IMG/VR virus record: IMGVR_UViG_3300038825_000719
Location: 1-25,112 of that record
Source: a virus
DNA length: 25,112 nucleotides
Reading direction: 5' to 3' (one strand)
Shown here: positions 14,342 to 17,825 of the stretch, piece by piece
Numbering within the stretch: position 1 is the stretch's first letter
Layout of the letters: each line of letters starts with the position of its first letter
Made by a program: the position numbers and the translations under genes
Notes under the pieces: generated by a model
Databases searched by the model: none
Told to the model about the DNA's origin: nothing
Seen by the model: only the letters and a program-made list of their open reading frames with translations

Positions 14342-14614
14342 GTGGCTATTACATACAGGGGGGAACGCTTTAGAGGTTATAATAAACCAAAGCGTACCCC
14401 TAAACACCCTAAGAAGTCACACGCTGTATTAGCTAAGTCTGGTGGAAAGATTAAGTTGATTCGTTTTGGACAACAAGGCGTAAGGGGTGCAGGTAAGAAT
14501 CCACGATCAGCAGCAGCGAAAGCAAGAAGAAGAGCATTTAAAGCACGACACAGAAAAAACATCGCTAGAGGTAAGATGAGTGCTGCTTACTGGGCGAATA
14601 AAGTAAAATGGTAA
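14342..14614 (+). CDS. Small basic conserved phage protein (GTG start)
   Basis: A 90-residue, very basic protein. Its hallmark is GGKIKLIRFGQQGVRGAG followed by an Arg/Lys/Ala-rich helix, then ARHRKNIARGKMSAAYWANKVKW. I recognise the 'KLIRFGQQGV...F(K/R)ARH..NI..GKMSAAYW...VKW' pattern from many marine phage genomes, where its role is unknown. The GTG start is supported by AAGGGG 8 bases upstream, and only 2 bases separate it from the previous stop. High charge suggests DNA or RNA contact, or a place in the capsid. Confidence 0.7.
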   Translation: MAITYRGERFRGYNKPKRTPKHPKKSHAVLAKSGGKIKLIRFGQQGVRGAGKNPRSAAAKARRRAFKARHRKNIARGKMSAAYWANKVKW

Positions 14615-14624
14615 AGGATTAAAA

Positions 14625-14921
14625 ATGGAAGTTGGAAAAAATACAAAATTTACACTAAGTATAGAAACTGCTGCTAGTATTGGTGTTACAATATTTATGG
14701 TAGTAGGATTATGGTTTAATCTACAAGCTGATATACAAGAAGCAAAAGAGCTTCCTGAACCACCAGTTAGTAGAACAGAATATGATTTAAAAGATCAGAT
14801 GATTCGTAATAGTATTATGAATACAGAAGATAAAGTTGAAAAACTAGAAGAAAAAGTAGATGACATTAAAGAGGATACACGCAGTATTAATGATACTCTA
14901 CTAAAAATGAATAATAATTAA
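14625..14921 (+). CDS. Membrane-anchored coiled-coil protein (lysis-related?)
   Basis: A 98-residue protein with one hydrophobic segment (about residues 14-33, AASIGVTIFMVVGLWFNLQA) near the N-terminus, then a Pro-containing linker, then a coiled coil (about 60-95, IMNTEDKVEKLEEKVDDIKE). One anchor plus an extramembrane coil is the layout of inner-membrane spanins and of some holin-like proteins. AAAGGA precedes the ATG. It lies upstream of a secreted thioredoxin-fold gene and about 1 kb before the holin and endolysin, so a role in lysis is possible but unproven. Confidence 0.66.
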   Translation: MEVGKNTKFTLSIETAASIGVTIFMVVGLWFNLQADIQEAKELPEPPVSRTEYDLKDQMIRNSIMNTEDKVEKLEEKVDDIKEDTRSINDTLLKMNNN

Positions 14922-14922
14922 T

Positions 14923-15012
14923 ATGAGGTACAAAGATGAATTATTACTATGGTATGGTATGGTTGCTTGGATTATTGTTATGGCAATCGCCCTTATACTC
15001 GCAGTCCGTTAG
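14923..15012 (+). CDS. Possible nested 29-residue membrane peptide
   Basis: This frame begins at an ATG one base after the stop of the preceding gene (TAA-T-ATG) and overlaps the signal-peptide part of the next gene in another frame. It encodes a charged start (MRYKDE) and a continuous hydrophobic helix ending in Arg (LLLWYGMVAWIIVMAIALIL). No Shine-Dalgarno of its own is visible, but reinitiation after the stop is possible. Signal-peptide codons are often hydrophobic in other frames, so chance is a serious alternative. Confidence 0.25.
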   Translation: MRYKDELLLWYGMVAWIIVMAIALILAVR

Positions 15013-15322
15013 ACTAGACAGCTTCCAAGATGTGCAGTTACTTAATGTACAGAATTGTTCTGTAGTACAAGTAAATGCAAGTTGGAATCATCAAAACAGA
15101 GTAAAAATTGAAAAACTAGCAAACATTTGCTATGTTGCAGAAATAGACATAGAGGACAAAGTTATTGGTGCTACCATAGCTAAAGAGTGGAACATTACAA
15201 TCGTTCCTACTATTATTGTGCTAGAAAATGGTAAAGAGGTAAAACGATTTGTACCTGGAATTAGTATGAGATTCAACGAAGATACTATTATTGCAGATGT
15301 TAGAAAAGAAGTAAAACAATGA
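14936..15322 (+). CDS. Secreted thioredoxin-fold protein lacking the CxxC active site
   Basis: A 128-residue protein. Residues 1-23 look like a signal peptide (hydrophobic MVWLLGLLLWQSPLYS). The rest has the thioredoxin order: a strand with VVQVNASW, a helix, the strand CYVAEIDIE, then 'IAKEWNITIVPTIIVLENGKEVKRF', in which Pro91 matches the cis-proline. Where WCGPC is expected the sequence is WNHQN, so both catalytic cysteines are gone; Cys41 and Cys65 remain. It cannot do normal disulfide exchange and may act as a binding or structural protein outside the cytoplasm. GAGG precedes the ATG. The stop overlaps the next start (ATGA). Confidence 0.75.
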   Translation: MNYYYGMVWLLGLLLWQSPLYSQSVRLDSFQDVQLLNVQNCSVVQVNASWNHQNRVKIEKLANICYVAEIDIEDKVIGATIAKEWNITIVPTIIVLENGKEVKRFVPGISMRFNEDTIIADVRKEVKQ

Positions 15323-15501
15323 GAAAAAAAAGAAAATCGAGAGTCAATCAAGCAGGTAATTATACTAAACCTACGCTTAGAAAGCGTTTATTCAATAAAC
15401 TCCTAAGAGGAAATAAAGGTGGTAATCCTGGACAATGGAGTGCTAGAAAAGCACAGATGTTAGCACTCGCCTACAAACGAGCAGGTGGTGGTTATAGATA
15501 A
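15319..15501 (+). CDS. Small 'GGNPGQWSARKAQ' basic protein
   Basis: A 60-residue basic protein with the motif GGNPGQWSARKAQMLALAYKRAGGGY near its C-terminus. This 'GGxxGQWSARKAQ...YKxAGGGY' pattern is one I remember from many marine phages and some large DNA viruses; its function is not known to me. It overlaps the thioredoxin-fold gene by 4 bases and the next gene by 1 base (TAATG), so the three are translated from one message. Confidence 0.72.
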   Translation: MRKKRKSRVNQAGNYTKPTLRKRLFNKLLRGNKGGNPGQWSARKAQMLALAYKRAGGGYR

Positions 15502-15740
15502 TGGCTCTCAAGAAATCACAGAAAAGTCTACGCAGGTGGACGAAACAAAAATGGCGTACCAAATCTGGTAAACCTTCTAAGAAAACTGGTGAAAGATATT
15601 TGCCTGAACGACTGTTAAAAGCAATGACTAAATCAGAATACGCATACGAAACTCGAAAGAAACGCAAAGCGACTAAAGCAGGTAAGCAACGAGCTAAGTA
15701 TTCTGCTAAAACAAGAAAAAGAATGCGTAGATATACATAA
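15501..15740 (+). CDS. Small 'TKSGKPSxxTGERYLP' basic protein
   Basis: A 79-residue, very basic protein. The core KSLRRWTKQKWRTKSGKPS, then TGERYLPERLLKAMTKSEYA, then KAGKQRAKYSAKTRKR is recognisable as a small family I recall from cyanophages, other marine phages and algal viruses. It has no known enzymatic role. The extreme positive charge suggests nucleic-acid binding or packaging into the virion. It directly follows the QWSARKAQ protein with a 1-base overlap, and the two may act together. Confidence 0.72.
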   Translation: MALKKSQKSLRRWTKQKWRTKSGKPSKKTGERYLPERLLKAMTKSEYAYETRKKRKATKAGKQRAKYSAKTRKRMRRYT

Positions 15741-15779: not shown

Positions 15780-16007
15780 ATGTCTAAAGAAACAAAACAA
15801 GATGAATTTAAAGTAGTGCTAGAAGATGGCAAAGAAGTAAAATTTGACGATCTGAAAGACGAGCAAAAAGTAATGGTAAATCAAATTAGAGATTTAGATA
15901 TACAGCTCGGCAGAATGAGCTTTCAAGCACAACAACTTCAAGCTGCAAAGAATCACTTTTCTGCAGAACTTAATTCTTCTTTGAAAGAAGAGAAGGAAGA
16001 TGCCTAA
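15780..16007 (+). CDS. Small helical protein, DUF6447-like
   Basis: A 75-residue protein: a short beta start (FKVVLEDGKEVKFDDL) followed by a long helix (KVMVNQIRDLDIQLGRMSFQ...LQAAKNHFSAEL). This 'DGKxYxxxxLxxEQK...RDLDxQL...LQxA' pattern resembles DUF6447-type proteins as I remember them; no function is known. A strong GGAGG site comes 5-6 bases before the ATG. Its last 8 bases overlap the holin gene (ATGCCTAA), placing it in the lysis transcription unit. Confidence 0.7.
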   Translation: MSKETKQDEFKVVLEDGKEVKFDDLKDEQKVMVNQIRDLDIQLGRMSFQAQQLQAAKNHFSAELNSSLKEEKEDA

Positions 16008-16371
16008 GTTAAATGTAGTTGCAGGTATCATAGATAAAGTAGCAGACAAAATCGATGACTTTACTCTTGACAAAGCAGAAAAAGCAGAACTCATACAAGA
16101 GATTAACAAAGCTCAAATTGAGGTTAATAAAGTTGAAGCAAACAGTAATAGTTTATTTGTTGCAGGTTGGCGTCCTTTTGTTGGTTGGACTTGTGGAGTA
16201 GCACTATGTTATCACTTCGTACTACAACCCTTCTTACTTTTTCTGTTACATTCATTTGGTTATCAAGTGGATTTACCAGTATTCGATATGACAACTCTCA
16301 CGACAATACTTCTGGGTATGCTCGGTTTGGGGGGTATGCGCAGCTTCGAGAAAGTGAAGCGATCAGCATAA
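16000..16371 (+). CDS. Holin (GTA-type 3TM holin family)
   Basis: A 123-residue protein with a charged amphipathic N-terminus (about residues 1-48), then WRPFVGWTCGVALCYHFVL, and a C-terminal hydrophobic segment LTTILLGMLGLGGMRSFEKVK. The 'WRPxxGW...LLGxLGLGGxRxxEK' signature is that of the GTA-type phage holin family, which opens the inner membrane to end infection. Two or three membrane helices are visible between residues 52 and 115. The gene is immediately followed, with a 1-base overlap, by a GH108 endolysin, the normal partner. Confidence 0.85.
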   Translation: MPKLNVVAGIIDKVADKIDDFTLDKAEKAELIQEINKAQIEVNKVEANSNSLFVAGWRPFVGWTCGVALCYHFVLQPFLLFLLHSFGYQVDLPVFDMTTLTTILLGMLGLGGMRSFEKVKRSA

Positions 16372-16844
16372 TGGAGTTCAACGAAATCATTGAGAAAGTC
16401 CTTGAACACGAGGGTGGTTATGTCAATGATAAAGATGATTTAGGTGGGGAAACAAAGTATGGTATAACCAAACGATTTTATCCTCACCTTGACATTAAGA
16501 ACTTAACTAGGGAACAAGCAAAAGAAATCTATTATCAAGACTATTGGATTCCTTCCAAAGCGTCTAAACTTCCTGCAGATCTACGATACGCTTACTTTGA
16601 TTGCGTTGTAAATACTGGACAATATCGTGCAGTAAAAATATTACAACAAGCGTGTAATAATAAAAATACATTTGATATTAAAGAGGACGGCAAGATTGGA
16701 GCAGCAACAATATCTGCTTGTAAAAAATTAGAAGCAGATAGATTTATTTCATATAGAATTTTATTCTATTCTTTGCTAATTTCTGATAACCCCACACAAG
16801 AAAAATTTTGGTATGGGTGGTATAAAAGAGCTAAAGGAGAATAG
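16371..16844 (+). CDS. GH108 endolysin (lysozyme-type muramidase)
   Basis: A 157-residue peptidoglycan hydrolase. The N-terminal motif FNEIIEKVLEHEGGYVND contains the catalytic Glu of the GH108 family (E-G-G-Y), followed by GGETKYGITKRFYP. The C-terminal half (DCVVNTGQYRAVKILQQA...DGKIGAATI) is the peptidoglycan-binding domain usually fused to it. The start is set at 16371 because it gives the normal family N-terminus and overlaps the holin stop (TAATG). The frame stays open upstream, and an ATG at 16206 with a good GGAG site would add a signal-peptide-like extension. Confidence 0.88.
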   Translation: MEFNEIIEKVLEHEGGYVNDKDDLGGETKYGITKRFYPHLDIKNLTREQAKEIYYQDYWIPSKASKLPADLRYAYFDCVVNTGQYRAVKILQQACNNKNTFDIKEDGKIGAATISACKKLEADRFISYRILFYSLLISDNPTQEKFWYGWYKRAKGE

Positions 16845-17825
16845 ATGCCTACATACATTACAGCTAGAGATTTAAAAGATACCTTTCCAAACTTAGACGA
16901 GTTTGACACAAAAAAACCTGTGTATGGTTGGGTGGCAGAATCTACAAATAGATATGTGTCACACGATTCTGGATTGGTAACTGTTCTTTTTGCAGACGGA
17001 AAAGATTTAGGTTCTGCACAATCAGCTTTGTCTGATGTAGATGCAAACGATGAATGGTTTTACGATTCAGCAGCAGACGCAGTATATTATTATAATAGTG
17101 CTAGTAGTCCAGAAGATTTATTGATGGAAGCAGGAGAAGATTTTGTTACATTAAAAACAAGAGTGATGCAAGACGCAAGTGATTATGTAGATTCTAAACT
17201 TGATTCTAATTTACCAAGAGAGCAATTTTTATTAAAAGATGGTACATACGACTATCTCATTAGACGACTAACTTCATTAGTCGCAGCATTCTTTTTAGTA
17301 AAAGGGAAAGATCCTACGAGTGAAATAGCAGAAGCGTTATTTGAAGAAGCACAAATGCACATTGCAGACTTAAATGCAGGAAAAGCAAAACTAAGTTATC
17401 AGAACACAGGAGATGCTTCAAAAGGCATTGTAAGAAAAATGTCTGTGTCTGGAAGTCTTAATATTGTTGACACTAGAGGAAATTACTTTGGTAGCTACGA
17501 CAGATTAAAAGTTATTGTAACTACTGGTGGTGCTATTGGTACTGCGAAGTATTCTGTGTTTGCGAAAGATGACGATACTTTAAAAAATAATCAAGTGGTA
17601 ACAGATGAAGTTATTAATGGAGATTATCAAGAATTAGCAGCAGGATTGCAGATAAGATTTCAAGGATCATCAGATAGTTCTACTGCAACACAAAATGATG
17701 AGTGGGAAGTAGAAGTAACAGGTATTTACGAAGAAACAGAAAATGCCTCTATGCGTTCAGTTAAAATGACTCGTAAAGATTTTAAACAATTCTATCGAGG
17801 TAAGAATGGCTCTCGCATCTACTAA
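16845..17825 (+). CDS. Head-tail connector protein (gp36/DUF1320-like N-terminal part)
   Basis: A 326-residue protein. The first ~190 residues (YITARDLKDTFPNL, then MQDASDYVDSKLD..LPR, then LIRRLTSLVAAFFLVKG and ALFEEAQMHIADLNAGKAKL) follow the pattern of the gp36/gp6-like head-tail connector families, which form a ring under the portal. About 60 residues in the N-terminal part (residues 40-95, acidic and Tyr-rich) look like an insertion. The C-terminal ~120 residues are a beta-rich extra domain. It begins one base after the endolysin stop, with AAAGGAG upstream, and starts the tail-joining block. Confidence 0.65.
   Translation: MPTYITARDLKDTFPNLDEFDTKKPVYGWVAESTNRYVSHDSGLVTVLFADGKDLGSAQSALSDVDANDEWFYDSAADAVYYYNSASSPEDLLMEAGEDFVTLKTRVMQDASDYVDSKLDSNLPREQFLLKDGTYDYLIRRLTSLVAAFFLVKGKDPTSEIAEALFEEAQMHIADLNAGKAKLSYQNTGDASKGIVRKMSVSGSLNIVDTRGNYFGSYDRLKVIVTTGGAIGTAKYSVFAKDDDTLKNNQVVTDEVINGDYQELAAGLQIRFQGSSDSSTATQNDEWEVEVTGIYEETENASMRSVKMTRKDFKQFYRGKNGSRIY

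What the first reader, a model, noticed from the sequence alone, without database searches (positions are those of the whole stretch)
14936..15322. Secreted thioredoxin-fold protein with both active-site cysteines replaced
Signal peptide, thioredoxin strand/helix order and cis-proline (VPTIIV) are all present, but WCxxC has become WNHQN. Loss of catalysis with retention of the fold and an export signal suggests a non-enzymatic role in the periplasm or envelope, for instance in lysis timing, superinfection exclusion or virion contact. It sits between membrane-protein genes and the small basic genes, close to the lysis genes.
Basis: partly seen in the sequence, partly recalled or inferred. Interest (0 to 1): 0.5.

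Follow-up and report, generated by a model that had tools for sequence, protein, structure and literature searches.

The report
Phage envelope module with dead thioredoxin
Many uncultured marine viruses of bacteria carry an exported thioredoxin-shaped protein that has lost its reactive cysteines, regularly next to a gene for a membrane-anchored coil and sometimes next to one for an outer-membrane barrel, so it may be part of an undescribed machine for breaking or guarding the cell envelope.

Summary
Window 14936-15322 (+) encodes a 128-aa protein with an export signal, a predicted thioredoxin fold (AF2 pLDDT 77.9; Z up to 14.6) and WNHQN for WCxxC. It is not a decayed copy: W-N stands there in 201 of 201 distinct homologous ORFs that cover the site, CxxC in none, and dN/dS is 0.02-0.09 in 10 of 12 pairs (saturated in 2). 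Two other cysteines are both kept in 191 of 195.

The gene directly upstream (14625-14921: one transmembrane helix, a highly conserved juxtamembrane stretch, a coiled coil) adjoins it in 166 of 166 loci with room; in the reverse search 109 of 109 such genes are followed by a homologue of this protein. In a sister type a predicted outer-membrane barrel gene follows (51 of 51); the window's type lacks it.

A Gln after the signal peptide suggests Bacteroidota or related hosts. No convincing lipobox protein (o- or u-spanin) was found in the window and five relatives. Best guess: a non-redox adaptor in an envelope module, most likely for outer-membrane disruption at lysis (0.4). Superinfection exclusion is the main rival. 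No function was tested.

The parts
14936..15322 (+). Thioredoxin-fold protein with export signal and without active-site cysteines, 128 aa
14936..15001 (+). Signal peptide (residues 1-22), supposed mature end at Q23
   Evidence: judged by eye and script; Q23 in 123 of 123; loose pattern [SAG]Q in 193 of 194 of the wider set
15083..15097 (+). W50-N51-H-Q-N54, place of WCxxC
   Evidence: N51 in 201 of 201 distinct ORFs
15056..15058 (+). C41, start of first core strand; possible disulfide with C65
   Evidence: 123 of 123; both Cys in 191 of 195
15128..15130 (+). C65, start of second core strand; possible disulfide with C41
   Evidence: 123 of 123; both Cys in 191 of 195
15203..15214 (+). V90-P91-T92-I93, cis-proline loop equivalent
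   Evidence: 123 of 123; P91 and T92 also in the divergent set of 7
14625..14921 (+). Partner 'TMcc': 98 aa, N-terminal transmembrane helix (about residues 13-33, by eye), conserved stretch, C-terminal coiled coil (by eye)
   Evidence: directly upstream in 166 of 166 loci with room; 6-18 bases apart in 203 of 205; 109 of 109 in the reverse search
14751..14807 (+). LPEPPVSRTEYDLKDQMIR, highly conserved juxtamembrane stretch of the partner
   Evidence: P44, P46, R50, E52, Y53, D54, L55, D57, M59, R61 in 91 of 91 distinct sequences; K56 90, Q58 89, I60 89; in 9 divergent ones P44, R50, E52, D54, K56-R61 hold
16000..16371 (+). Context: GTA_holin_3TM-type holin
   Evidence: Pfam 54.6 bits over cut-off 24.8; PHROG holin
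16371..16844 (+). Context: GH108 endolysin, no signal or membrane anchor seen by eye
   Evidence: Pfam 93.3 bits over cut-off 21.2; start

Best explanation
The protein is a non-redox thioredoxin-fold adaptor. It is exported to the periplasm and cleaved before Q23 (inferred). It is probably held together by a C41-C65 disulfide in most members (inferred) and uses the old substrate groove of thioredoxin (W50, N51, P91, kept in all types) to bind a partner (inferred). The partner is most likely the product of the gene directly upstream, an inner-membrane protein whose periplasmic side (topology inferred from charge) carries a highly conserved peptide and a coiled coil. The linkage of the two genes is shown; physical binding is not. 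In a sister type a third gene, encoding a predicted outer-membrane barrel, follows directly, so the set can reach from inner to outer membrane. The most likely job is the outer-membrane step of lysis: a spanin-equivalent in phages that lack recognisable spanins. In the window's own type the outer-membrane partner would have to be a host protein or the membrane itself. The 'non-redox, paired module' part I hold at about 0.9; the lysis step is the guess scored here.
For: WN and groove residues conserved. dN/dS 0.023-0.085 in 10 of 12 pairs, dS saturated in the other 2. Type-2 proteins have the barrel gene directly downstream in 51 of 51, type-1 in 0 of 105; 18 more were unclassed. The barrel model (pLDDT 70.8) matches outer-membrane barrels in all 50 rows shown by each search. 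The pair or trio sits beside unrelated lysins: GH108 in the window, M15 in L249 and L261. The lipobox scan gave none in the window and three weak non-ATG candidates in five 45-55 kb relatives. A survey of 677 phages of Gram-negative hosts left 91 without spanins and says that an OMP could act as an o-spanin (PMC6139136: passages, section 15). The partner's supposed layout resembles the i-spanin described there (N-in, coiled-coil periplasmic domain; passages).
Against: 58 of 146 distinct loci lack a homologue of the three tested lysis genes near the pair, and in some the pair lies between tape-measure and tail-like genes (L150, L299). No barrel homologue was found in the window or in 16 other type-1 records of 28-64 kb, which may be incomplete. 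The thioredoxin has no lipobox. The barrel's Foldseek TM-scores are low (0.19-0.37 by query length). Allele replacement confined to the mature thioredoxin part (L102) fits a specificity role at least as well. G003 and G006 hold other N-terminal-TM proteins that were not followed up. No complex could be modelled. Known Bacteroidetes phages are reported to use only u-spanins (PMC12596118, passages), and u-spanins were named in two cultured flavophages (PMC8776804, passages); the host here is inferred.
Confidence: 0.4

Rival explanations
1. Superinfection exclusion: the inner-membrane coil and the periplasmic thioredoxin (with the barrel where present) form a plug that stops genome entry of related phages, and exchange of the mature thioredoxin part sets specificity.
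For: Against L102 the window's DNA is mostly 90% or more identical over 4 kb, but 66-76% over the mature thioredoxin part; type-1 and type-2 sets replace each other in phages with a similar gene 16845; the pair is not always near lysis genes.
Against: The genes lie in the late structural and lysis region; both were present in 23 of 23 loci examined around gene 16845 with more than 2.3 kb upstream, so not patchy there; selection is strongly purifying. No match in PADLOC-DB, which holds bacterial defence proteins and so says little.
Confidence: 0.27
2. Lysis timing: the exported protein is an antiholin-like regulator that binds the periplasmic part of the upstream membrane protein acting as a holin or holin partner, as T4 RI binds T (recalled).
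For: Single-TM partner with a supposed periplasmic tail, small exported neighbour, adjacency; lysis genes nearby in 88 of 146.
Against: A separate 3TM holin is present in the window; the partner's tail is a short coiled coil; a barrel component has no place in this scheme.
Confidence: 0.14
3. Assembly or folding helper for tail or receptor-binding proteins, or a factor for phage proteins that pass the envelope.
For: A homologue of the fibre-like gene (85 loci) or of a tape measure (28-30 loci) lies within 1.5 kb upstream (loci partly redundant).
Against: Tail assembly is cytoplasmic (general knowledge), whereas the protein carries an export signal in nearly all members.
Confidence: 0.08
4. Redox function through C41 and C65 instead of the active site.
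For: Both cysteines conserved in 191 of 195.
Against: They lie at the starts of two core strands in the model and are missing as a pair in the four type-3 ORFs that keep WN.
Confidence: 0.04
5. A decayed or orphaned thioredoxin, or a chance ORF.
For: Below the Pfam cut-off for Thioredoxin on its own.
Against: 201 of 201 WN, no CxxC relative among those found, low dN/dS, linked partner.
Confidence: 0.01

Closest known systems
Thioredoxin (Pfam PF00085, TIGR01068)
   Same: Predicted fold, active-site Trp, cis-Pro position
   Different: Both catalytic Cys replaced, the first by Asn throughout; export signal; the buried Asp position (recalled from E. coli Trx Asp26) is Q in 177, E in 23, H in 2 and unread in 3 of 205; paired with a membrane-protein gene
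Two-component spanins (lambda Rz/Rz1) and u-spanins
   Same: Inner-membrane protein with N-terminal TM and coiled coil; adjacent exported partner; often near holin and endolysin
   Different: The partner is a folded thioredoxin without lipobox; the outer-membrane element, where present, is a predicted barrel and not a lipoprotein
T4 holin T and antiholin RI (recalled)
   Same: Single-TM protein with periplasmic domain plus small exported binding partner
   Different: No sequence link tested; the window has a separate 3TM holin
Host thioredoxin as T7 DNA polymerase processivity factor (recalled)
   Same: A thioredoxin used for binding, not for redox chemistry
   Different: Cytoplasmic, host-encoded, keeps its cysteines
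A0A516MHR8 (unnamed viral protein in BFVD)
   Same: 55% identity, TM 0.86: a deposited relative; A0A516M4Z3 and A0A516L471 come next at 21% and 29%
   Different: No name or function in the tables at hand

Membership tests
Thioredoxin fold superfamily | Thioredoxin fold | tested here: met
   model: Z 14.6, rmsd 2.7 over 105 residues; Z 14.3, rmsd 1.7 over 98
Thioredoxin (PF00085), redox enzyme | WCxxC active site | tested here: not met
   WN in 201 of 201, CxxC 0
Thioredoxin (PF00085), redox enzyme | Pfam gathering score | tested here: not met
   17.5 vs 23.5 for the window protein; a divergent relative reaches 26.0
Two-component spanin | Inner-membrane component with N-terminal TM and periplasmic domain | tested here: inconclusive
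   TM and coiled coil read from sequence; topology not shown
Two-component spanin | Outer-membrane lipoprotein component (lipobox Cys) | tested here: not met
   none in the window; three weak non-ATG candidates in five relatives
Two-component spanin | Needed for outer-membrane disruption | not testable with these tools
   needs experiment
Unimolecular spanin | One protein with lipobox and C-terminal TM | tested here: not met
   no lipobox in the thioredoxin or the partner; lipobox scan
T4 RI-type antiholin | Binds the periplasmic domain of a holin and delays lysis | not testable with these tools
   needs experiment
Outer-membrane beta-barrel (third gene of types 2 and 3) | Antiparallel barrel with signal peptide and aromatic or hydrophobic C-terminus | tested here: met
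   predicted strands, pLDDT 70.8; Z up to 15.9, low Foldseek TM 0.19-0.37; last residue Y in 53, L in 2, F in 1 of 56. Not found in the window's type

The most novel reading that the evidence does not exclude
A phage-encoded trans-envelope machine of a new kind: an inner-membrane coiled coil, a cysteine-less thioredoxin that works as a peptide clamp, and (in part of the lineage) a phage-made outer-membrane barrel, which together disrupt the outer membrane in phages that lack spanins, with type-1 sets using a host barrel instead.
Probability: 0.3. Interest if true: 0.85.

Novelty: new variant of a known kind. Interest (0 to 1): 0.6.

Why it matters
How phages without recognisable spanins break the outer membrane is put as an open question in the spanin survey (91 of 677 genomes; section 15 of PMC6139136, which suggests that an OMP could serve as o-spanin). 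This family gives a concrete, widespread candidate (375 related stretches in IMG/VR from one pattern search) with defined parts that can be cloned and tested. It is also a clear natural case of a thioredoxin that seems to have become a pure binding protein, with a constant Asn where the attacking cysteine stood.

Tried and rejected
Decay hypothesis: rejected. The DNA pattern VQVNAxWCxxC in IMG/VR gave 0, but it asks for the family's own flank, so a distant CxxC relative could be missed. Cellular relatives: none in genome contigs by profile peptides (21 stretches, 0 relatives) or by the partner's exact motif (0). Cultured phages: no partner match at E up to 10, no barrel match of use, best thioredoxin E 0.1 and, for a type-3 protein, E 0.006 to an ordinary WCVPC thioredoxin ORF in an RNA-phage contig. 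Host from capsid, terminase, holin and endolysin relatives: uninformative. tRNAs in 18 fetched stretches: only a tRNA-Met in two type-3 stretches. Weak Pfam matches such as Imm53, NifT and NPV_P10 lie below cut-off and were discarded. A read-through fusion of partner and thioredoxin for folding was considered and not run, because the folding tool returns no coordinates. In one search the gene names printed per locus are an artefact of the script; only its counts are used. In one search four ORFs show L because the pattern hit the signal peptide; one search is the proper count. One search left 18 ORFs unclassed by its rule; by eye 16 are type-1-like (no barrel), L262 is type-2-like with a barrel and L213 type-2-like without one. 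Its low-score class of 5 is L242, L249, L261, L294 and a fragment, L375; the single 'yes' there is L375. Mended on re-check: the endolysin start (16371), the record types, the M15 match of L261, the wording on G108 and on the reverse search.

Full report
What is there. The ORF at 14936-15322 (+) is as described. It starts 14 bases after the end of the gene at 14625-14921 and overlaps the next ORF (15319) by four bases, so it sits in a tight gene run. The window is a 25,112-base IMG/VR virus record, G+C 33%.

Fold. Pfam Thioredoxin matches the window protein at 17.5 bits, under its cut-off of 23.5. A profile of 22 relatives (A1) hits a thioredoxin chain in the PDB at E 8e-5, with more at weaker E. 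The AF2 model from that alignment has mean pLDDT 77.9 and pTM 0.70, with blocks at 79-90 from residue 31 on. Foldseek lists thioredoxins from E 2.7e-6, and VIA-align gives Z 14.6 to 13.6 in the 50 rows shown, rmsd mostly 1.6-2.1 (up to 2.7), 95-106 residues aligned. NCBIfam TIGR01068 matches at 20.8 bits against a cut-off of 96.8. So the protein has the fold but does not reach the family cut-offs.

The active site. W50 aligns with the Trx Trp; N51 and N54 replace the cysteines. N51 is in 123 of 123 distinct full ORFs. In the wider set it is in 201 of 201 that cover the site, N54 in 139, CxxC in none. Some searches that gathered these sequences used peptides across this site and could favour WN. 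Two sets did not: loci fetched by the upstream gene's DNA motif, and loci fetched by the gene at 16845, also show no CxxC. Sequences down to 24% identity (L249, L261: FWAPWNETN, FWAPWNEVN) still have WN. W50, N51, P91 and T92 are kept across types; G108, in 123 of 123 at first, is Asp in 24, Asn in 1 and unread in 5 of 205 of the wider set. dN/dS against 12 relatives is 0.023-0.085 in 10, with dS saturated in 2. Cys41 and Cys65 are in 123 of 123 and both in 191 of 195 of the wider set; of the other four, two have one and two have none. They begin two core strands of the model. A disulfide is likely but not shown, and cannot hold in those four.

Export and host. Q23 is in 123 of 123, and a loose [SAG]Q pattern is met in 193 of 194 of the wider set. 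Exposure of a Gln by signal peptidase I is typical of Bacteroidetes (PMC5837995: abstract start, passages; PMC10653852: abstract start). The same passages report high values in a few other bacteria, for example Ignavibacterium album, so the host is Bacteroidota or a related lineage, not proven. No relative was found in genome contigs.

The partner. A homologue of the 98-aa gene at 14625-14921 lies directly upstream in 166 of 166 loci with at least 1 kb of room (several loci are the same contig fetched twice). Other neighbours vary: 60-aa basic gene 51, endolysin 51, holin 129 of 187 loci with 2.5 kb downstream, in the expected place. Among 91 distinct partner sequences the juxtamembrane stretch is almost invariant; in nine more divergent ones P44, R50, E52, D54 and K56-R61 hold.

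The third gene. In type 2 (L150, L162, L168, L210) a 363-369 aa protein with an export signal starts at the end of the thioredoxin gene; in type 3 (L261, L242) a relative lies upstream of the pair. By script, type-2 thioredoxins have it directly downstream in 51 of 51 and type-1 in 0 of 105; of 18 unclassed ORFs, 16 are type-1-like without it, L262 type-2-like with it, L213 type-2-like without it. The 88.7 kb type-3 record behind L249 gave no match, nor did the window or 16 other type-1 records. Its model (pLDDT 70.8, pTM 0.59) meets outer-membrane barrels in all rows shown (with low TM-scores; Z up to 15.9). The model is moderate, so the strand number is not claimed.

Setting. In the window the pair lies between the large fibre-like gene and a 3TM holin and GH108 endolysin, with small genes between. 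In L249 and L261 it adjoins a 74-aa gene with hydrophobic segments, and an M15 lysin lies close by. Of 146 distinct loci with room, 88 have one of the three tested lysis genes near and 58 do not; in some the pair follows a tape measure. The lipobox scan found none in the window, G003 or G006 and three weak non-ATG candidates in G001, G002 and G018. Other N-terminal-TM proteins exist in G003 and G006.

Mosaicism. Against L102 the window is mostly 90% or more identical over 4 kb, but 66-76% over the mature thioredoxin part; in L083 a drop to 78-88% lies instead over the end of the partner gene and the signal peptide. Relatives found by the gene at 16845 carry both partner and thioredoxin in 23 of 23 listed loci with more than 2.3 kb upstream. 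L333, with 2,270 bases, gave no match there and holds part of a barrel gene, so both kinds of set occur beside similar genes.

Reading. The set looks like a core, late, envelope-facing module with a binding thioredoxin. I favour the outer-membrane step of lysis because the parts can span the envelope, the genes often adjoin unrelated holins and lysins, and no convincing spanin was found. The spanin survey leaves 91 of 677 genomes unexplained and suggests that an OMP could act as o-spanin. Against this stand the loci without the tested lysis genes, the barrel not found in the window's type, and the u-spanins reported for known Bacteroidetes phages; allele exchange fits superinfection exclusion as well. 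The lysis claim is an inference at 0.4.

Novelty. Searches of the paper library for a phage periplasmic thioredoxin-like or redox-dead protein gave nothing of this kind in the listings, nor did one for phage barrels in lysis cassettes; of the papers listed there only PMC8776804 was opened (passages). An unnamed relative is in BFVD.

Noticed in passing
window 15000-15320 against L102: DNA identity mostly 90% or more on both sides but 66-76% over the mature thioredoxin part: local allele replacement in otherwise near-identical phages.
   Followed up: partly
G005 (64 kb) and G007 (51 kb): Two divergent copies of the thioredoxin-like gene in one record: two modules in one phage, or joined genomes.
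   Followed up: no
window:3609-3824 (+): 71-aa protein with two hydrophobic segments; look-alikes lie directly after the thioredoxin in L249 and L261 and next to the partner gene in G002: a possible holin.
   Followed up: partly
L242:3327-3887 (-), L294:1001-1564 (+): Two tandem partner-type membrane genes with the same motif.
   Followed up: no
window 14342-14614, 15319-15501, 15501-15740: Very basic small proteins (phrog_7595, 17747, 14910; function unknown) whose place relative to the pair varies.
   Followed up: no
L400:154-564 (NC_073930.1): RNA-phage contig whose first ORF reads as an ordinary WCVPC thioredoxin and then runs into unrelated sequence: probably an assembly chimera.
   Followed up: partly
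L248, L299 and relatives: A subgroup with E instead of Q at the place of the buried Asp of thioredoxin (23 of 205 ORFs) and D at the G108 place.
   Followed up: no
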